A stretch of DNA of 64,000 nt from Maribacter aestuarii (GTDB taxonomy: Bacteria; Bacteroidota; Bacteroidia; Flavobacteriales; Flavobacteriaceae). The notes beneath the pieces were generated by a model that did not search any database, was not told where the DNA came from, and saw only the letters and a program-made list of their open reading frames with translations. How positions within the stretch are numbered: the stretch's first letter is position 1; each line of letters begins with the position of its first letter. A program made the translations under genes and the position numbers. Shown piece by piece: positions 36,400-63,925 of this stretch. Where the stretch lies: the NCBI RefSeq assembly GCF_027474845.2, contig NZ_CP107031.2, positions 124,001 to 188,000 on the forward strand, in the 5' to 3' direction.

Positions 36400-37080
36400 T
36401 TACTGCTTTCTGTTTGTAGTTACCCATGTTTTGTAAACCGGCACTCCAATTACGTTCGTTCCCGTGGTCTCTCCTAACATACTGTTTGGAATCTCTACTA
36501 CGATAGACATGGTGTTAGCCCCGTCAAAAGTATCCTCCCCCGGTACATTAAAACCGGAATTGTCTTCCATAGAGGGAGCCAATACTTGGTTGAAACGAAA
36601 AAAGTCGAAGAAAAAAGCATCCTGTCTTGGACCGGCAAACAATGAAACACCGTCTGCTGTAGTTTCAACTATTGCAGTATCCGATGATATATCTACGGAA
36701 CCCAAGGGAGAACCTGCCAATACCGTACCGCTCAATCCTGTTGCGCTTGGTGCTGCAGGACCAAAGAAATACATTTTACCATCTCTAGGAATAACTTGAA
36801 TAACCAAATCTTCTACCACATCATTATCAGTGTCGATATTAATTTCCACTAAAACATCCTCATCAAAAGTCCCGTATGGTAGACCTTCTACTACATTCGT
36901 CTGTAGGTCCACTATAAAAACTGTGTTGTCCGAACCTTCTGTTGGTTCAAACGCGTAAAAATCGGCTATATCCGATGTAGTTCCCGTGGTGCCCGGCGCA
37001 TCAATGTGATCGGCCGCCACCAATAAAGCCCCTGCTATGGCTACTCCCGCAAGGCCCAAAAATAATTTTGATTTTTTCAT
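36400..37080 (-). CDS. DUF4331 N-terminal-half exported protein
   Basis: 226 residues with a signal peptide (about 1-22). Directly after it comes AADHIDAP...TSDIADFYAFEP, the start of the DUF4331 family, followed by the beta-rich part up to a C-terminus at KTWVTTNRKQ. The later family motifs (GRxLQDDVID, FPYL) are absent and appear in the next gene. The two genes are 25 bases apart and end in a common terminator. Function is unknown. Confidence 0.75.
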   Translation of the reverse strand: MKKSKLFLGLAGVAIAGALLVAADHIDAPGTTGTTSDIADFYAFEPTEGSDNTVFIVDLQTNVVEGLPYGTFDEDVLVEINIDTDNDVVEDLVIQVIPRDGKMYFFGPAAPSATGLSGTVLAGSPLGSVDISSDTAIVETTADGVSLFAGPRQDAFFFDFFRFNQVLAPSMEDNSGFNVPGEDTFDGANTMSIVVEIPNSMLGETTGTNVIGVPVYKTWVTTNRKQ

Positions 37081-37206
37081 TTTGCTTTTAATTTTTAGAT
37101 TAGAATCACCAATACTTACGGGGCAATAAATGGAGGGTTTGGTTTTAAATGTTAAAATTTTGTTAACGATATTTTACAGTGCACCGACTTTAAAGATTAG
37201 ATTAGG

Positions 37207-37255
37207 AAGGGGACAATTTCAATTTTGGTCGATTAAGGATTGACCAATCCCCTTT
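37207..37255 (+). other. Nested inverted repeat in the divergent spacer
   Basis: TTGGTC (37225-37230) pairs with GACCAA (37242-37247), and outside it AAGGGG (37207-37212) pairs with CCCCTT (37249-37254). It lies 32-80 bases before the LETM1-like gene, so it could fold in that mRNA leader or be a binding site. Confidence 0.4.
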
Positions 37256-37286
37256 ATTATATAACTTTGACGCTTTAATTCATCAC

Positions 37287-38486
37287 ATGAACCCATCAAC
37301 ATCTGGCTGGATAGATAAATTTGGCTTTTTAGTCAAAGATCATAAGAGCGCCTTTCTCTCCTTTGAGGAATTATATCGAAGTGTGAAGAAAACGGGGTTT
37401 GTGTATGGACTAAATACAGGAATACCACCATTCATTATTCCTGAACATAAACTGTCTGAAGACGAAAAGGCTAAGATTAATTTGTTGAGCGCACTTTATT
37501 TCACATTCAACTTAGAAACTAAAGAGGCCAACTTTAATACGTTTCTGGAATATATTTTCAAATTCTATAAAGCGCTTGAACTAGACCATGTATCTTTTTT
37601 GGGCAAGCTGTTTACGGGAAACAAAACCTCTTCCAAATTAGAGAAATTGTTGGAATCCAGGATATATATAGAAGATAATCTAATAAGTAAGACTTTCAAT
37701 GCCTTCATCACCAATTCGCTCCTTTTTATAGATGTGCTTTTGTTTAAAAAATACTTGACCGACCAACGTAATATTAAAAAATATGCGCAAAAAATAGAAT
37801 ATTTGGCTATTAATATTACGTATCACACGTTAAATTCCAAGGAGCAAAATAAGAGTGATGAGAACCTTGCTTTGCTCTTGGCCTCATCTTTGACCTATAT
37901 AGAAAGTGATATTCAAAATTTTGACGGTTCTTACAGGGAACAGCTTTTGCCAACAAATGCAGTTTGGGAAAATCGGTATTTATTGGATATGGCCTGTTTG
38001 ACCGTGTGGGAGGACCATTCGCTTGAATACAAGGAATCTGAATTTATTTTTGGAATTGGTAAGGATTTAGGACTGGACCAGGATTATATTCTCCAAGCAT
38101 TGACCAACGTAACTAATTTCTTTGCGGAGAACGAAGAAGCCATACCCTTTCTGAAACAGCAGAACCTTGGCCTTAAGTTTTACGAAAGTATGGGCAAATT
38201 GGTGAATAGGCTCATTTTAAGGAACAGCAAACGATTGCAAAAAGAACTTTCGGAAAGTGCGGAATTGGTAACCTTACTTTCAAAATCTACCGTCCGTGAT
38301 TTGAGTAAGGAAGAAAAGAAAAAAGTGCAAAGTCAGCTGCTGGATATTTTTAAAAGTATACCATCATTAGCCATATTTATCTTGCCGGGCGGGGCTATCC
38401 TCTTACCTATTTTCGTTAAACTGATACCCAAGTTGTTACCGTCTTCCTTTGATGAGAATAGAATAGAAAAAGAAGAAAAAAAGTGA
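37287..38486 (+). CDS. LETM1-like protein (LETM1-related biofilm-associated family)
   Basis: 399 residues. Most of the protein is predicted helical without a signal peptide. Near the C-terminus (about 350-390) it has the LETM1 signature: DIFKSIPSLAIFILPGGAIL then LLPIFVKLIPKLLPSSFDE, a hydrophobic helix ending in the characteristic PSSF-like turn. In mitochondria LETM1 is a cation/proton exchanger; bacterial members are described as biofilm-associated in Flavobacteria, but the mechanism is unknown. It stands alone, divergent from DUF4331 and convergent with the LytTR regulator. Confidence 0.75.
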   Translation: MNPSTSGWIDKFGFLVKDHKSAFLSFEELYRSVKKTGFVYGLNTGIPPFIIPEHKLSEDEKAKINLLSALYFTFNLETKEANFNTFLEYIFKFYKALELDHVSFLGKLFTGNKTSSKLEKLLESRIYIEDNLISKTFNAFITNSLLFIDVLLFKKYLTDQRNIKKYAQKIEYLAINITYHTLNSKEQNKSDENLALLLASSLTYIESDIQNFDGSYREQLLPTNAVWENRYLLDMACLTVWEDHSLEYKESEFIFGIGKDLGLDQDYILQALTNVTNFFAENEEAIPFLKQQNLGLKFYESMGKLVNRLILRNSKRLQKELSESAELVTLLSKSTVRDLSKEEKKKVQSQLLDIFKSIPSLAIFILPGGAILLPIFVKLIPKLLPSSFDENRIEKEEKK

Positions 38487-38506
38487 TGTTTTCGGGGTAT
38501 AGACAA

Positions 38507-38528
38507 AATCTATAATAAATTATAGATT
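38507..38528. terminator. AT-rich hairpin between convergent genes
   Basis: A perfect 10-bp stem (AATCTATAAT/ATTATAGATT) with a 2-base gap between the stops of the LETM1-like and LytTR genes. The A- and T-rich flanks suggest a shared bidirectional terminator, though no long T tract is present. Confidence 0.5.
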
Positions 38529-38554
38529 GCTTATTACCAATATTTTAAATAAAT

Positions 38555-39319
38555 TTACTCCAACCAAAGCTTAAAGTCCTTAACCCGCTCTCTACTTACG
38601 ATAATTTCTTGCTCAGAAAAGTGGTTCAGCTTAATTTGAAGGCGTGAATTCGTATAGGAAATGATATCCTTAATATGATTTATGTTTACATAGAACTTAC
38701 GGCTTACCCTAAAGAATATCTTAGGTTCCAATTCGTTTTCTAAATTTTCCAATGTAGTGTCCAACAAGTAATTTCTACCATCAGAAGTGGCGGCATAGGT
38801 ACCCTTGTTTTCGCTGTAAAAGCATTCGACCTCATCTGCATTGATAATCTTCAGATGCTGACCCACTTTCGCCGTGAATCTTTTTTTATATTCCCTTTCC
38901 AAAGGATTTACCAATAATTTCTTGATATCGTCAAAATCCAAGGCTAACTTCTGGGCGGATGGTTTCAAAGACTTGAATTTCTTCACAGCACTTTCCAATT
39001 CCTCGTCATCTATAGGTTTTAACAAGTAATCAATACTATTCAGCTTAAAAGCCTGCAAGGCATACTCGTCGTATGCAGTGGTAAAAATTATAGCGCTTTT
39101 CACCTCAATGATATCGAATATTTCAAAAGAAAGTCCGTCCGATAACTGAATGTCCAAAAAGATAAGATCAGGGTGTTCGTTTTCTTGAAACCATTCGATG
39201 GACTCTTCCACGGAATGTAGCATGGTAGATACCTCAACACCCAGCTCGGCCAACAAGCGCCCCAATCTCCTCGCTGCTGGTTTTTCATCTTCAATAATTA
39301 TTACGTTCATGCTATTCAT
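38555..39319 (-). CDS. LytTR-family response regulator
   Basis: 254 residues. A receiver domain (about 4-120) has the acidic pair ED, phospho-acceptor Asp56 in FLDIQLS, a Thr in TTAYDEYA and Lys in LLKPID. A LytTR DNA-binding domain (about 150-254) ends in FRVSRKFYVNINHIKD and SRERVKDFK. The start at 39319 has a GGGAGG 11-12 bases upstream; ATG 39310 is the alternative. It is the last gene of a run that includes a LytS-type histidine kinase and six 2TM domains, so the kinase at 41151 is its likely partner. Confidence 0.92.
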   Translation of the reverse strand: MNSMNVIIIEDEKPAARRLGRLLAELGVEVSTMLHSVEESIEWFQENEHPDLIFLDIQLSDGLSFEIFDIIEVKSAIIFTTAYDEYALQAFKLNSIDYLLKPIDDEELESAVKKFKSLKPSAQKLALDFDDIKKLLVNPLEREYKKRFTAKVGQHLKIINADEVECFYSENKGTYAATSDGRNYLLDTTLENLENELEPKIFFRVSRKFYVNINHIKDIISYTNSRLQIKLNHFSEQEIIVSRERVKDFKLWLE

Positions 39320-39372
39320 TTTTTTTAATCCCTCCCAGATAACTTATACATAATATACTCTTGTTTCTATTA

Positions 39373-39717
39373 CTATTTATACTTTGCCGAATCGTTCTTA
39401 TCGCTTTCCATGAATTTTCTAATCTGTGCTTCTTCCCAATTTTTACTTAAAATAGATTTCGTAGAAAATACGTTTAGCCCATGGAAGAACAATCCTATGC
39501 CCCAGAAAAACCACACAGCAAAAGTACCAACGTGCCAAAAAGGCCACATAAAGGTTTCGCCAAAATAAGAATTGCCGATAAGTTTAACCATAACGAGCAT
39601 CGTATTTATTACTAAATATACAGTAAGATGTTTGTAAAACCCTTTTAATGCAACCACCTTCTCCTTAGCCTTTTTTAATTTGGCGCTTTGGCTATAATCC
39701 TCCATTTCAATCTTCAT
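39373..39717 (-). CDS. 2TM-domain protein, copy 5 (diverged)
   Basis: 114 residues: a basic N-terminal helix (AKEKVVALKGFYKHLTVY), two membrane helices (about 30-46 and 65-88) and a C-terminal charged helix (KNWEEAQIRKFME). The loop between the helices is long, and the YNPxFGK motif of other copies is replaced by STKSILSK. Its start at 39717 overlaps the previous gene by 11 bases. It matches the 2TM family (PF13239). Confidence 0.8.
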   Translation of the reverse strand: MKIEMEDYSQSAKLKKAKEKVVALKGFYKHLTVYLVINTMLVMVKLIGNSYFGETFMWPFWHVGTFAVWFFWGIGLFFHGLNVFSTKSILSKNWEEAQIRKFMESDKNDSAKYK

Positions 39718-40066
39718 TTTCTTCCCGTAAAAATTTTTCTAATTGTCTTTTCTCCCACTTTTTTAAGAATTCAGGCTTTAATTCCTGCCATGTTTGGGAT
39801 TTGAATTTAAATACATACAGTCCGTGTATTGCAAGTCCAATACCCCAAATAATAGGGGTTCCCAAAAGATTAAGGCTTGCCCAGTCACTAAAATTCTTTT
39901 CTTGCATCCAAACATAATCGTCCTTGAACCAATTGAAGAGATTTAATTTTACAACTAACAAGAGAATATTTATAACTACATAAACTCTAAGGTGACGATA
40001 AAACTTTTTCATATCGTTCACGCGCTTCTGGGCTTTCAAAAATTTCTCTGATTGCTTGCTTTCCAT
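39707..40066 (-). CDS. 2TM-domain protein, copy 4 (most diverged)
   Basis: 119 residues. The N-terminal signature (KAQKRVNDMKKFYRHLRVYVVIN) and the second helix with WGIGLAIHGLYVF are kept, but the connecting loop is the longest in the set and the YNPxFGK motif has become a longer, different segment (FKSQTWQELKPEF). The C-terminal KKWEKRQLEKFL helix remains. Its start is one base from the stop of the next upstream copy and its end overlaps the downstream copy by 11 bases. Confidence 0.78.
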   Translation of the reverse strand: MESKQSEKFLKAQKRVNDMKKFYRHLRVYVVINILLLVVKLNLFNWFKDDYVWMQEKNFSDWASLNLLGTPIIWGIGLAIHGLYVFKFKSQTWQELKPEFLKKWEKRQLEKFLREENED

Positions 40067-40067
40067 G

Positions 40068-40400
40068 TTATTTAAATTTTTCAGCTTCCTTTCTATCCTT
40101 TTCTATATACCTCTGAATTTGGCGTTCTTCCCATTGTTTAGAGAAAATCGGGTTGTAGGAGAAGACCTTTAAGCCGTGGAAAAATAGACCGATTCCCCAA
40201 AAAAACCAAATGGCAAAACTTCCAAAATTTAAGGTGTCCATAAAAGAATCCCCATTACTCATTCTACCAATAATCGTGCTTAGCGTTATGAAACAGTTCA
40301 CCCCTATATAAGCTGCCAAATGCCAATAAAATCCTTTGAGTTCGTGTAAGCGCTTCTTGGCCCTTTTTAATTTAATTTTATCATCCTCCATTATTTCCAT
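40068..40400 (-). CDS. 2TM-domain protein, copy 3
   Basis: 110 residues with the motif order of the family: KRAKKRLHELKGFYWHLAAY, membrane helix, a loop of about 20 residues, FFWGIGLFFHGLKVFSYNPIF, and SKQWEERQIQRYIEK. It overlaps the upstream copy by 10 bases, so translation is probably coupled; ATG 40391 would remove the overlap. Confidence 0.8.
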   Translation of the reverse strand: MEIMEDDKIKLKRAKKRLHELKGFYWHLAAYIGVNCFITLSTIIGRMSNGDSFMDTLNFGSFAIWFFWGIGLFFHGLKVFSYNPIFSKQWEERQIQRYIEKDRKEAEKFK

Positions 40401-40693
40401 CTTTTTTGATCTTCTTCTTTTTCCATCAACTCCTTAATTTTACGGTTCTCCCAGTCCTTGCCAAAAAAAGGGTTGAAATCGAAGGCCTTTACTGCCTGAA
40501 ACACCAATCCTATCCCCCATCCAAATGCTGCCCATAGGAACCATGGGTATCTCCACTCGTCTATCCAGTAATTAAGGGCCCCCAGGAGGGTAATGAATAT
40601 TGCGTAAGACACTAAACTGCCGTAAAATTTCTTAAGCGCTTCAACCCGAGTTTTAGCCCTAAAATATTTGTCTTCTCTATTCCAATTTTCCAT
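40391..40693 (-). CDS. 2TM-domain protein, copy 2
   Basis: 100 residues. It has the short-loop form of the domain: RAKTRVEALKKFYGSLVSY, two helices separated by WIDEWRYPW, then FGWGIGLVFQAVKAFDFNPFF and GKDWENRKIKELMEK. Histidine of the usual HG motif is replaced by glutamine. It begins 43 bases after copy 1. Confidence 0.8.
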   Translation of the reverse strand: MENWNREDKYFRAKTRVEALKKFYGSLVSYAIFITLLGALNYWIDEWRYPWFLWAAFGWGIGLVFQAVKAFDFNPFFGKDWENRKIKELMEKEEDQKRWK

Positions 40694-40736
40694 GATATAA
40701 TTGTTTGGCTACTGTCTACTTAAAGATACCAATTTT

Positions 40737-41015
40737 TCAAAATTGGCTCTCGTCCATGAATTCCTTGATTTTACGTTCTTCCCAGTTTTTTCCGAAAATA
40801 GGATTATAGTTATAGGCTCTGCTCCAATGGGCTAGTAATCCTATTCCCCATCCCAAAGCGGGGAAAATAAACCACAGGAAACTAGTCGTATTAAAGTTAA
40901 CCCATGCTAAAAAAGAAATGACGATACAATAGGCGAGTAAGTTCATGTAAAAAGACTTAAGTGTTTCCAATCTTTCTTTAGCTTTTTGGTATCTGTAGGC
41001 GTTTATATTTTCCAT
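40737..41015 (-). CDS. 2TM-domain protein, copy 1 (closest to the kinase-fused copy)
   Basis: 92 residues. It is strikingly like the kinase C-terminus: RYQKAKERLETLKSFYMNLL, AYCIVI, TTSFLW, GWGIGLLAHW, YNPIFGKNWEERKIKEFMDE. This suggests that one derives from the other by recent duplication. It is separated from the kinase gene by 135 bases, the largest gap in the run. Confidence 0.82.
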   Translation of the reverse strand: MENINAYRYQKAKERLETLKSFYMNLLAYCIVISFLAWVNFNTTSFLWFIFPALGWGIGLLAHWSRAYNYNPIFGKNWEERKIKEFMDESQF

Positions 41016-41150
41016 GATATTAATTTTTTAATTAGTTATTAATTACACTTCAAATATCCCCAATGAGCTGCGTTTTCAAAAAAACAGATTACCGAACTGT
41101 AGTATTTAATGGATAGATTGACTTTGTAATTATAGCTGTTGGCAATAAAA

Positions 41151-42494
41151 TTAAAAGTCTTCTTTGTCCATCAATTCGCGTAGTTTTTTCTCCTCCCATC
41201 GTTTGCCCCAAATCGGGTTGTAACCAAAGGCCTCCATACCGTGCGTTAAAAGACCAAATCCCCATCCAAGAATAGGAAAAATAATCCATGGGAAACTGGT
41301 AGTTTTGAGGTTAAGGTAAGCCAAACATGGAATGACGATACAATAGGCAATGAGATTGCCATAAAATCCTTTAACGGCTTCCACACGCTCCTTGGCCTTC
41401 TGATACCTTTTATCCTCAATAAAATCTTCTTGCGACTCTACAACAGATACCTGTTGCGTTAGCATGGGCAAATGTACCGTGAAGTCTTTATTTGTTTTAT
41501 CTATAACCATTTCACGTTTACTGAGTAGCGCATAGCGTTGTCTTATATTCTGAAGCCCCACCCCACTACTCTTTTTAACGACCTGTTTTTCCTGTAAATT
41601 ATTGGTCACTTTCAAAAAGCCGTCTTCCTCATAGATACGGATGTGTAATGGTTTGACTGAATTTACCACGTTGTGTTTTACCGCATTTTCCAGCAATAAT
41701 TGAAGAGATAAAGGAACTATTTTGGCCTCTGGATTACTACTGGCCTCGGGAATCTCCAAAATAATACTATCCTCAAAACGCATTTTAAGCAATCGTACAT
41801 AAGTCTTGGCAAATTGAAGTTCTTCATCTACCGAAACCAAATCCTTATTCTTTTGCTCTAAAACGTACCGATATACTTTGGAAAGCGAGGTTGTGAATTT
41901 CTGGGCCTGATGTGGGTCTTCATCAATGAGACTGGTAAGCACGTTTAAACTATTAAATAAAAAATGCGGGTCTAATTGGTTCTTTAAGGCATCAAACTTT
42001 GCCGATGCCGTACCCGCTATTATTTTCTGTTCTTTGACTTTGCTTTCTTGACGATACTTGTAGTACCATATCGCATAGAAGATCAGCGCAATTCCCAACG
42101 CTATTAATATGGGCTGTCTATAGTTTTCCAATGTCTGTGAGGCCAAGACCTGTTGAAAAGATCTGTCATAAAAGCCTGTTAATATAATCCACCTAGCAAA
42201 AAATACCCCAATACAGGATACTAGGATATTACCCGAAACGGCTATGGCCATTCTTTTGGCAGTGTACAGAAAATTATCGTATCGTTTTAAAAGAAATACA
42301 AACCAAAACGTATTAACCATATAAAGGATGGTCGAGAATATCATTGTTTGAAAATATTCCGTCCATAAATCACTCACCAGATATTCATACTTCGTATTAT
42401 CCGTGAGAGAATAGTAGGCAATAAATCCAATAAAGACGAGCGTTCCTACTAGAAACGCCCTGAAAATCTCTTTTAGAAATCTATTTCTGCTCAT
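41151..42494 (-). CDS. LytS-type sensor histidine kinase fused to a C-terminal 2TM domain
   Basis: 447 residues. Four membrane helices (about 11-29, 47-69, 82-105, 127-146) precede a His_kinase domain with phospho-acceptor His177 in LDPHFLFNS. The ATP-binding domain has N-box ENAVKHN (269-275) and G-box GVGLQNIR (311-318). After it, residues 363-447 form a complete 2TM domain (RYQKAKERVEAVKGFYGNL to YNPIWGKRWEEKKLRELMD). Its start overlaps the TPR-like gene upstream by four bases (ATGA). The likely partner is the LytTR regulator at 38555. The 2TM end has no evident place in phosphotransfer and may interact with the stand-alone 2TM proteins. Confidence 0.9.
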   Translation of the reverse strand: MSRNRFLKEIFRAFLVGTLVFIGFIAYYSLTDNTKYEYLVSDLWTEYFQTMIFSTILYMVNTFWFVFLLKRYDNFLYTAKRMAIAVSGNILVSCIGVFFARWIILTGFYDRSFQQVLASQTLENYRQPILIALGIALIFYAIWYYKYRQESKVKEQKIIAGTASAKFDALKNQLDPHFLFNSLNVLTSLIDEDPHQAQKFTTSLSKVYRYVLEQKNKDLVSVDEELQFAKTYVRLLKMRFEDSIILEIPEASSNPEAKIVPLSLQLLLENAVKHNVVNSVKPLHIRIYEEDGFLKVTNNLQEKQVVKKSSGVGLQNIRQRYALLSKREMVIDKTNKDFTVHLPMLTQQVSVVESQEDFIEDKRYQKAKERVEAVKGFYGNLIAYCIVIPCLAYLNLKTTSFPWIIFPILGWGFGLLTHGMEAFGYNPIWGKRWEEKKLRELMDKEDF

Positions 42495-43114
42495 TTACCA
42501 CATTCTTTTGCAATGGTTTCCGCCCTATCGGCTCCCCAATTGGGATGAAAAGGACTCTCGGCTTTAAAGTTAGCAAAAAGTTCCAACGAACGTTCTACAT
42601 CCTGGCAATACGGAGTTACGTCCTGCCCAAAATAGCGCGCGGAGCCCATATCCCATTCTGCCTTGGAAAAAACTACCCTGGGATTATCGGGCGCCAGTTG
42701 TAAGGCCTGTGCATATAAAGCAGTTACTTTGCCAGATAGTGTCATTCCGTAGGTGGCCCCATCAAAAGCAATCCAAGCCGTATGGGTCATGGCCTGTTGC
42801 ACTAGAATTTCTGGGTTGTTCGGCGAAATCGATTTTGCTATATCTATATATTCCTGGGCCTTGTCCAGTTGTTGTTTCAATTTCTTCTCATCTTTTTCCC
42901 CAAAGGAAATTATGGTATTTATCTGGGCAACATAATAGTAGGGCAGCCAATTTTCGGGTTCTGCAGCACTAATACGTTCAAATAGATTGGAAGCCTCATT
43001 GGCTTTTCCTTCACCCCATAAGGTAAACGCCTTTTGCATTCCGGTGGTATATTGGTCTTGGGCCAGACCTGAAGTGGCGATAACTAGAACTACTAATGTG
43101 ATAATTTTTTTCAT
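42491..43114 (-). CDS. Exported TPR-like protein, first gene of the 2TM/LytTR run
   Basis: 207 residues with a signal peptide ending GLAQD. The mature part is helical with TPR-type repeats (FERISAAEPENWLPYYYVAQ, AKSISPNNPEILVQQAMTH, ALQLAPDNPRVVFSKAEW). It ends in a Cys-containing tail and may bind a ligand or partner in the periplasm. Coupling to the kinase gene by an ATGA overlap suggests it is an accessory sensor component (inference). Confidence 0.82.
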   Translation of the reverse strand: MKKIITLVVLVIATSGLAQDQYTTGMQKAFTLWGEGKANEASNLFERISAAEPENWLPYYYVAQINTIISFGEKDEKKLKQQLDKAQEYIDIAKSISPNNPEILVQQAMTHTAWIAFDGATYGMTLSGKVTALYAQALQLAPDNPRVVFSKAEWDMGSARYFGQDVTPYCQDVERSLELFANFKAESPFHPNWGADRAETIAKECGK

Positions 43115-43230
43115 GACTGATTGATTTATAGATTCATTTTTTTAGTTGCACAAATCTCCTTCTACTCCTTAGAAAACTAAAAAAAGAAATACCGAACCGT
43201 CAATTCCGAAGACTGAATTGAAATAAACCG

Positions 43231-63196: not shown

Positions 63197-63925
63197 TTAA
63201 ATGGTATGCAGACGGTTCATTAAGAGTTCCTTGTGGGTTTTGCTTAATGGAATCACCTTTCGTTTGATTTCTATGTGGTGATCTGTTACCACATCCAATT
63301 TAGCAATATTTACCATATAGCTTCTATGCACACGTATGAAACTAGCCTTTGGTAGGTTTTCTTCCATGGTCTTTAGGGTACATGAGAGGACCAACTTTCC
63401 CTTCAGCGTGACTATGGTAGCGTAATTGCGATTAGCTTCTATATAGAGAATATCTTGAAGCAGTAACTTTTCCATCTTTCCATTATGCCGTACGAAAATA
63501 CGATCCTGCAACACTTCAACATCATTGGGTGGTGTAATAGATTTCTTTTCGCCCATTTCTTCTACTACGAGCGCTATGGTTCGCTGAAGGTTTAACTTAT
63601 TAAAAGGTTTGGTTATAAATGCCCTAGGGTGGGTTTCTTTAGCCTTATTAAAAGTAGCCTCATCGGAATTAGCGGTCAAATAAATTATTGGTATGTTTTG
63701 AAATGCTTGGATAGCCCTGGCAGTTTCAATACCGTTCATTTTTCCTTTTAGGTTAATGTCCATTAAAAGTATATCAGGGGTATTTTCCCTTATATGCACA
63801 AGCGCATCTTCACCTCTTGACAACAAACCATCTACTTCGTATCCCAAATTGGTTAATTGTAATGATATGTTCGCTCCAATAATCATATCATCTTCAACAA
63901 TCAATATACTTGTAGTTTTCTTCAT
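63197..63925 (-). CDS. LytTR-type response regulator (second)
   Basis: 242 residues. The receiver domain (about 7-120) has Asp56 in LLMDINLKG, a Thr in LTANS and Lys in ITKPFN; the LytTR domain (about 140-242) has the core IFVRHNGK, YIEANRNYATI and FIRVHRSYMVN. It differs from the regulator at 38555 in having a longer receiver-LytTR linker and a CheY-like (not LytR-like) first half. Its ATG overlaps the TAA of the upstream kinase (TAATG), so it is coupled to that gene. Confidence 0.9.
   Translation of the reverse strand: MKKTTSILIVEDDMIIGANISLQLTNLGYEVDGLLSRGEDALVHIRENTPDILLMDINLKGKMNGIETARAIQAFQNIPIIYLTANSDEATFNKAKETHPRAFITKPFNKLNLQRTIALVVEEMGEKKSITPPNDVEVLQDRIFVRHNGKMEKLLLQDILYIEANRNYATIVTLKGKLVLSCTLKTMEENLPKASFIRVHRSYMVNIAKLDVVTDHHIEIKRKVIPLSKTHKELLMNRLHTI

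What the first reader, a model, noticed from the sequence alone, without database searches (positions are those of the whole stretch)
38555..43114. Array of six 2TM domains built around a LytS/LytTR two-component system
Five stand-alone 2TM proteins lie between a LytTR regulator and a histidine kinase that itself ends in a 2TM domain, with a TPR-like exported protein at the front. All eight genes run in one direction with overlaps or short gaps. Copies differ in loop length (short in copies 1-2 and the kinase, long in copies 3-5) and in loss of the YNPxFGK motif in copies 4-5. The repeated pairing of a membrane domain with one sensor suggests they form a sensor or regulatory complex, with copies under different constraints. 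The arrangement, not the family itself, is the unusual point.
Basis: partly seen in the sequence, partly recalled or inferred. Interest (0 to 1): 0.8.

Follow-up and report, generated by a model that had tools for sequence, protein, structure and literature searches.

The report
Self-regulated membrane array of a sensor
A row of small two-helix membrane proteins belongs to a bacterial sensor system that appears to switch on its own genes and a set of cell-envelope genes; such rows are common in related bacteria, but what the small proteins do is unknown and now looks testable.

Summary
In detail: six PF13239 (2TM) domains, the only six in this 3.86-Mb genome, lie in one eight-gene operon: exported TPR-like protein, PF06580 kinase with a C-terminal 2TM domain, five stand-alone 2TM proteins, LytTR regulator. 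The arrangement is not rare: 72 of 81 loci examined show kinase, array and regulator in a row, with 2-6 stand-alone copies, type II in 71 of 72 and type III in 72 of 72. New here: (i) a LytTR-type direct repeat (ACAATTCAT-12 bp-ACAGTTCGG) with a -7-like box 31 nt downstream lies before the array in 70 of 71 complete relatives and upstream of the kinase in 62 of 71; (ii) the same promoter type precedes TonB-receptor, DUF2141 and TPR genes, linked or dispersed, and in part of the genus a Toastrack gene of a PadR-PspC locus; (iii) in another family of the class, 7 of 8 fetched loci have one stand-alone 2TM and a kinase WITHOUT the domain, so free and fused forms stand in for each other. Best reading: the 2TM proteins are membrane partners of the kinase in an autoregulated envelope-sensing module. 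Contact, signal and sign of feedback are inferred. New variant of a known kind.

The parts
43190..43221 (-). predicted LytTR operator (direct repeat, 21-nt period) before the operon; -7-like box GAGATTTG at 43151-43158
   Evidence: matrix score 25.2; pattern hit with 3 mismatches; 31-nt distance read
42491..43114 (-). exported TPR-like protein, 207 aa
   Evidence: TPR homologue in 51 of 71 complete relatives
41151..42494 (-). PF06580 sensor histidine kinase, 447 aa, four N-terminal hydrophobic segments, C-terminal 2TM domain
   Evidence: His177 invariant in 39 of 39
41166..41402 (-). 2TM domain (type K, class A) at the kinase C-terminus
   Evidence: PF13239
41090..41121 (-). predicted LytTR operator before the 2TM array; -7-like box GATATTTG at 41051-41058
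   Evidence: matrix score 33.0; 1 mismatch to pattern; distance
40737..41015 (-). stand-alone 2TM copy 1, type I (class A, short loop)
   Evidence: 97.7 bits; type
40391..40693 (-). stand-alone 2TM copy 2, type II (class A); type present in 71 of 72 complete operons
40068..40400 (-). stand-alone 2TM copy 3, type III (class B, long loop); type present in 72 of 72; start overlaps copy 2 by 10 nt
39707..40066 (-). stand-alone 2TM copy 4, type IV (class B), YNPxFGK lost
   Evidence: 57.7 bits
39373..39717 (-). stand-alone 2TM copy 5, type V (class B), YNPxFGK lost; type seen in 6 of 72
   Evidence: 85.5 bits
38555..39319 (-). response regulator, receiver + LytTR DNA-binding domain, 254 aa; Asp56 invariant in 72 of 72

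Best explanation
This is a LytTR two-component module of the cell envelope in which the kinase works together with small 2TM membrane proteins. Proposed working: the membrane-bound kinase senses a state of the envelope through its own TM domain and through 2TM subunits (one fused at its C-terminus, others free); it phosphorylates the LytTR regulator; the regulator binds a 9-12-9 direct repeat just upstream of the promoter and activates (a) its own operon, (b) the 2TM array from a promoter of its own, and (c) envelope genes: a TonB-dependent receptor, DUF2141 and TPR exported proteins and, in part of the genus, a Toastrack gene in a PadR-PspC locus. The newly made free 2TM proteins then join or compete for the kinase complex and reset it (feedback). 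Shown by comparison here: operon, ordered subunits, operator, promoter geometry, recurrence of the operator at the linked receptor genes, free/fused interchange. Inferred: that this regulator is the binder, activation rather than repression, direct 2TM-kinase contact, the negative sign of the feedback, the signal.
For: Operon and domains. Kinase, 2-6 stand-alone 2TM and regulator in a row in 72 of 81 loci. Order K-(I)-II-III, then IV/V in varying order. Operator: a matrix refined on one clade and tested on the other exceeds the 99.9% shuffle level in 55 of 58 and 20 of 20 gaps; of 166 sites over 20 in 1.27 Mb (80 loci), 76 lie before the array, 57 within 1.5 kb upstream of the kinase, 33 elsewhere, 32 of these 33 beside TonB-receptor (pieces included) or DUF2141 genes by my comparison. 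-7-like box exactly 31 nt downstream in 71 of 78 array sites and 125 of 133 other sites though it is not in the matrix. 111 pattern hits against 4 for the reversed pattern summed over 36 genomes of the genus. Unfused form in family f67: 7 of 8 fetched loci show 2TM-kinase-regulator with no 2TM on the kinase (the 8th is cut by the contig end), operator score over 14 before the first gene in 8 of 8. Low dN for all copies.
Against: No complex was predicted or measured; the kinase model has pTM 0.46, the type II model 0.48, so nothing follows on contacts. 2TM proteins occur without this kinase: 44 of 54 PF13239-bearing genomes of the class sample show no kinase-length fusion over the cut-off; 11 such loci that I read show neither kinase nor operator. 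The separate array promoter is missing in 7 of 7 other genomes of the family. In f67 the -7-like box is at 31 nt in 2, at 32 nt in 3 and not found in 3 of 8 sites. The T-run 7-9 nt after the repeat is in 72 of 78 array sites but only 67 of 133 others. In this genome alone the pattern is weak: 7 hits against 4 reversed (3 mismatches), 2 against 2 (2 mismatches). Some dispersed sites could be read by other LytTR regulators; the best match to the beta-lactamase-fold target has no site in this genome.
Confidence: 0.6

Rival explanations
1. The 2TM proteins are output, not signalling parts: the regulator induces them to shield or remodel the inner membrane (as LiaI or PspB/C are thought to do elsewhere), and the kinase carries one only to sense the same membrane property.
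For: The array has its own operator-controlled promoter, as the envelope targets do; a Toastrack gene in a PspC locus shares the operator in part of the genus.
Against: The unfused family has a single 2TM gene overlapping or abutting the kinase gene and no array; 2TM is fused to the kinase elsewhere; types II and III are kept with the kinase in 71 and 72 of 72 loci.
Confidence: 0.22
2. The 2TM proteins are inner-membrane helpers of the TonB-dependent receptor pathway (assembly or energy coupling), and the kinase senses transport.
For: Receptor gene or pieces of it within the fetched flank in 22 of 80 kinase loci and in 9 of 17 loci of the three other groups, there mostly next to the operon; shared operator.
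Against: The receptor is about 37 kb from the operon in this genome and was not seen in the fetched flank of the other 58 of 80 loci; arrays persist without a neighbouring receptor.
Confidence: 0.1
3. The array is a tandem-duplication run without subunit logic; copy number drifts.
For: Copy number varies 2 to 6; type IV has up to three copies per locus, IV and V change places, and 7 of 72 operons hold a copy outside the six groups.
Against: Types II and III in 71 and 72 of 72 loci in the same order; low dN.
Confidence: 0.05

Closest known systems
LytTR Regulatory Systems (HdrRM, BrsRM; PMC6193735)
   Same: LytTR regulator, membrane protein in the operon, direct repeats mostly 12 bp apart and about 10 bp upstream of the upper promoter element, predicted autoregulation
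   Different: here the regulator has a receiver domain and a histidine kinase is present; several 2TM proteins lie between kinase and regulator; TonB/DUF2141/TPR genes share the operator
PF06580/LytTR two-component systems (LytSR, BtsSR type; recalled)
   Same: kinase with N-terminal TM bundle and LytTR response regulator
   Different: kinase with a C-terminal 2TM domain, plus 2-6 free 2TM proteins
LiaFSR / PspC-Toastrack envelope stress systems (PMC11237479, passages)
   Same: small membrane partners around a kinase; a Toastrack (DUF2807) gene among the predicted targets
   Different: no PspA/LiaH or LiaF in the operon; LytTR instead of HTH regulator; Toastrack site seen in 5 fetched genomes of the genus and weak here
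PF13239 2TM family and its PF06580 fusions
   Different: the names say nothing on copy number, operator or partners

Membership tests
PF13239 2TM | profile score over curated cut-off | tested here: met
   57.7 to 97.7 bits against 24.8
PF06580/LytTR two-component system | phospho-accepting His and N/G boxes in the kinase | tested here: met
   His177, Asn270, Gly311, Gly313 invariant in 39 of 39; assignment of these residues to boxes is recalled
PF06580/LytTR two-component system | receiver Asp and LytTR domain in the regulator | tested here: met
   Asp56 invariant in 72 of 72 (its role as phospho-acceptor is recalled); PF00072 and PF04397
LytTR Regulatory System (LRS) | direct repeats, 11-13 bp apart, just upstream of the upper promoter element | tested here: met
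   12 bp apart, T-run about 9 nt below the second repeat in 72 of 78 array sites
LytTR Regulatory System (LRS) | two-protein system distinct from two-component systems | tested here: not met
   kinase and receiver domain present; definition from abstract, headings and passages of PMC6193735
LytTR Regulatory System (LRS) | membrane protein inhibits the regulator | not testable with these tools
   needs genetics
Lia/PSP-type system | PspA/LiaH or LiaF/PspC protein in the locus | tested here: not met
   no such Pfam match among the ten proteins scanned, window 36400-43114

The most novel reading that the evidence does not exclude
A signalling rheostat in the membrane: the kinase carries one 2TM subunit covalently, and its own activity makes free class A and class B 2TM subunits that join or displace it, so that the number and mix of free subunits (2 to 6 genes, two types nearly always present) sets the gain of the sensor. 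This would be a way of tuning a two-component system by hetero-oligomers of a stand-alone version of the kinase's own domain, tied to a TonB-dependent receptor.
Probability: 0.35. Interest if true: 0.75.

Novelty: new variant of a known kind. Interest (0 to 1): 0.6.

Why it matters
The free/fused interchange, two nearly invariant subunit types and a precise operator make its role testable with a few deletions and one binding assay in a laboratory flavobacterium, and give predicted targets around an uncharacterised TonB-dependent receptor. It also extends the LytTR direct-repeat promoter logic described for LRS to a kinase-containing system of the Flavobacteriaceae.

Tried and rejected
The Flavobacterium johnsoniae coevolution paper (PMC10197871, passages) lists mutations in a LytTR gene (lines 2 and 5) and a histidine kinase gene (lines 1, 3, 4) with consecutive locus tags. 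I considered that this is our system, but consecutive tags leave no room for 2TM genes between them, so I do not use it; the locus itself was not examined.

Literature: ten searches listed nothing that looked like this operon or operator. This holds for the searched library only and is judged mostly from listings. Seven papers were opened, six by passages only (PMC10197871, PMC11237479, PMC5395568, PMC7440613, PMC6801697, PMC6337780); of PMC6193735 I saw abstract, outline, section 9 and passages. In the last four of the six the LytTR or 2TM words concern other things (the Xanthomonas one is a 'glycine zipper 2TM'). The ten papers, the one and two of the three were not opened.

Solved structures: the kinase finds a histidine kinase (6swj, residues 172-295) and nothing meaningful for the 2TM part; the TonB receptor finds only the N-terminal part of SusC homologues. 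Receptor specificity stays open. Two structure models gave topology only; no fold search was run because a two-helix hairpin would give meaningless hits.

Pattern hits in this genome at 194 kb (matrix 8.5) and 313 kb (none over 8) were judged chance; the one at 3731 kb before an S41-like gene scores 22.6 but lacks the -7-like box, so it is only a possible target. A search for the operator within about 1.5 kb of the 17 other LytTR domains of this genome found none over 12, but this control is weak: at that distance our own regulator gene shows none either, its nearest operator being 2.5 kb away. dS was above 1.3 or not computable in every comparison, so omega values are only indicative, and the L063 'c5' row compares with the regulator and is void. 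The clade-split test began from a matrix made on all loci before refining on one clade, a small leak.
Full report
WHAT IS THERE. Eight ORFs on the - strand, 43114 to 38555, are an exported TPR-like protein, a 447-aa kinase, five proteins of 92-119 aa and a 254-aa response regulator. Pfam gives PF13239 (2TM) for the five small proteins and for kinase residues 365-443, PF06580 for the kinase, Response_reg and LytTR for the regulator. No other PF13239 match exists in the 3.86-Mb genome. Hydropathy shows two hydrophobic regions in each small protein and four N-terminal plus one C-terminal pair in the kinase. The AlphaFold2 model of copy 2 (37 sequences, pLDDT 71.3, pTM 0.48) has a long first helix (2-45), a short loop, a second helix (52-71) and a C-terminal helix (80-99). 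The kinase model (39 sequences, pLDDT 78.7, pTM 0.46) shows the N-terminal helices, the catalytic part and helices 355-398, 405-422, 433-443. I infer a hairpin with both ends in the cytoplasm.

HOW COMMON. A scan of named genomes with the kinase kept the best 80 of 176 confirmed loci, among them Maribacter, Zobellia, Muricauda/Allomuricauda/Flagellimonas, Croceitalea, Eudoraea, Cellulophaga, Arenibacter and Pricia. With the window, 81 loci; 72 show kinase, array and regulator in a row; of the nine dropped, eight are cut by contig ends and one (L097) has no 2TM gene in the roughly 1.2 kb held after the kinase. Stand-alone copies: 2 in 9, 3 in 19, 4 in 26, 5 in 9, 6 in 9 operons; 241 of 350 distances between neighbouring genes are 60 nt or less, 101 of them overlaps. 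A LETM1-related gene (NF040639 in the window) is on the opposite strand in 69 of 71 complete relatives. In the same genus 35 of 35 relatives carry PF13239, 33 of 35 with three or more matches; the two with one match are 68 and 82% complete. In a class-wide sample 54 of 295 genomes (this one counted) have PF13239, 48 over the cut-off; 10 of the 54 have a match in an ORF of kinase length (447-480 aa), and all 10 have 2-5 stand-alone matches beside it; the other 44 have one to three matches and no such ORF over the cut-off (adjacency read from coordinates). The 10 are this genome, seven others of its family and two of another family of the order; one further genome of the family (G223) has a single unlinked copy, and family members without any match are not shown in the capped list. 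So the array is common near here, not unusual.

ORDERED SUBUNITS. A FastTree tree of 350 domains from the 72 operons separates the kinase domain from the copies (support 0.87). Groups drawn around the window's six domains have supports 0.63 to 0.88, so borders are soft: type II in 71, III in 72, I in 35, IV in 56, V in 6 of 72, and a copy outside all groups in 7; one stand-alone copy falls in the kinase group. The order is K-(I)-II-III, then IV and V in varying number and order; three operons have two type II copies and L042 has none. Types II and III overlap by exactly 10 nt in 42 of 71 adjacent pairs. A second tree of 120 domains with other families (midpoint root) joins K, I, II, the f67 proteins and 12 further copies (class A, support 0.74), and III, IV, V with 12 further copies (class B, 0.93); a third group (0.81) holds seven array copies of other families together with the three unlinked ones, on long branches. 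Identities to a close relative (L084) are 0.95 for the kinase part and 0.78-0.94 for the copies, dN 0.03-0.13, dS above 1.3 or saturated.

THE OPERATOR. The gap between kinase and copy 1 is conserved as a gap: 84-322 nt in 68 of 72 operons, 30, 740, 1012 and 2315 nt in the rest. It holds a direct repeat, ACAATTCAT-12 bp-ACAGTTCGG, 21-nt period, found in 78 of 79 gaps searched. A matrix refined on one clade and tested on the other exceeds the 99.9% level of dinucleotide shuffles in 55 of 58 and 20 of 20 gaps of 60 nt or more. In the 71 complete relatives a site over 14 is in the gap in 70 and within 1.5 kb upstream of the kinase in 62; the nine without the latter include five Zobellia whose degraded site scores 3.7-11.6, and L095, where only about 190 nt are held. 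Downstream comes a -7-like box: of 71 gaps long enough, 59 match TAnnTTTG in at least five of six positions exactly 31 nt after the repeat, the next best offset having 9. With a looser rule (A at position 2, TTT at 5-7, G or A at 8) 71 of 78 array sites and 125 of 133 other sites fit at 31; a T-run 7-9 nt after the repeat is in 72 of 78 and 67 of 133. The box was not in the matrix, so it is an independent check; many of these loci are closely related. The geometry resembles the LRS promoters of PMC6193735, Table 3. In the window the sites are 41090-41121 and 43190-43221.

THE REGULON. In the 80 loci (1.27 Mb) 166 sites exceed 20: 76 in the kinase-array gap, 57 within 1.5 kb upstream of the kinase, 33 elsewhere. 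By comparison, 32 of the 33 lie beside TonB-receptor genes (two loci with the gene in pieces) or DUF2141 genes; the one left (L050:9718) is inside the array. In this genome the receptor and a divergent DUF2141 gene lie about 37 kb from the operon with a site on each strand between them, both with the box at 31. Over 36 genomes of the genus the pattern with at most 2 mismatches has 111 hits against 4 reversed (sums over; 35 of 36 genomes have a hit; this genome alone has 2 against 2). I fetched 20 regions around hits that recur or lie outside the array. Genes just downstream: DUF2807 Toastrack in 5, DUF2141 in 5 (two with a divergent TonB gene), TonB followed by TPR in 2 (in L172 the TonB frame beside the site is only 337 aa), beta-lactamase-fold in 3, DUF7010 in 2, a 219-aa membrane protein in 2, an unassigned 204-aa protein in 1; one of each kind was scanned with Pfam, the rest assigned by matching N-termini. 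The Toastrack gene follows PadR and a PspC/LiaI-LiaF-TM/Toastrack gene; its match in this genome (67% identity) has a weak site, 15.8, with the box at 31. Dispersed targets are predictions.

FREE AND FUSED FORMS. Seven further genomes of the family have TonB (5 of 7), DUF2141 (5 of 7) and TPR (5 of 7) before kinase-2TM, 2-5 stand-alone copies and regulator (copy numbers by coordinates); sites over 14 occur in 7 of 7, none in the kinase-array gap, 12 of 13 sites with the box at 31; the 13th (L238:10905) looks stray. Two genomes of another family of the order have TonB-TPR-kinase-2TM-array-regulator with a 189-aa gene, methyltransferase-like in L131, inside the array, and sites of 16-22. In family f67 of the class 10 of 61 genomes have PF13239; I fetched eight. 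Seven show 2TM, kinase without 2TM, regulator, overlapping or nearly so; the eighth ends in the 2TM gene. TPR precedes in 5, TonB in 2, and a site scoring 16.5-38.2 lies before the first gene in 8 of 8, with the box at 31 in 2, at 32 in 3, not found in 3. Pfam finds PF06580 but no 2TM on the two f67 kinases tested; my own 2TM profile finds none on the other five. A protein in one lineage thus equals a domain of the kinase in another, the usual gene-fusion argument for partnership. Eleven other loci with one or two 2TM genes show neither kinase nor operator.

MECHANISM AND LIMITS. I take the 2TM proteins as membrane partners of the kinase, produced under its own control, and expect feedback. 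The LRS precedent, where the membrane protein inhibits, makes a negative sign more likely, but this system is not an LRS: it has a kinase and a receiver domain. Contact, sign and signal are untested. The rivals (membrane-protecting output; helper of the TonB pathway) are not excluded.

Noticed in passing
window 63197-63925 (-): A second LytTR response regulator lies in the window (LytTR domain at G000:C1:187209-187478); no operator of this type within about 1.5 kb.
   Followed up: partly
L128:8120-8554, L130:7756-8181: A separate 2TM gene (about 140-148 aa) apart from any kinase, in both loci beside a dihydrofolate-reductase-like gene; not in this genome. In the tree it groups, on long branches, with some array copies of other families.
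   Followed up: partly
window 37287-38486 (+): LETM1-related biofilm-associated protein (NF040639), convergent with the regulator gene and on the opposite strand in 69 of 71 complete relatives.
   Followed up: no
L205:2668 and L162:4171: Operator inside a PadR-PspC-Toastrack locus, between the PspC gene and a DUF2807 gene; strong in several genomes of the genus, weak (15.8) in this one.
   Followed up: partly
L078:6012-7218, L108:6602-7803: The TonB-receptor gene beside the kinase operon is in several pieces in both Pricia loci, while an operator-like site is still recognisable.
   Followed up: no
L112 and L094, between kinase and array: Gaps of 2315 and 1012 nt separate kinase and array, with the operator kept just before the array: what fills them was not examined.
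   Followed up: no
L131:8115-8684: An ICMT/PEMT-type methyltransferase-like gene lies inside the 2TM array of another family of the order; a gene of the same length is at the same place in L132.
   Followed up: no
L125:5076-5107 (-): Operator-like site (22.6) without the -7-like box before a gene with a weak S41-peptidase match in this genome.
   Followed up: no
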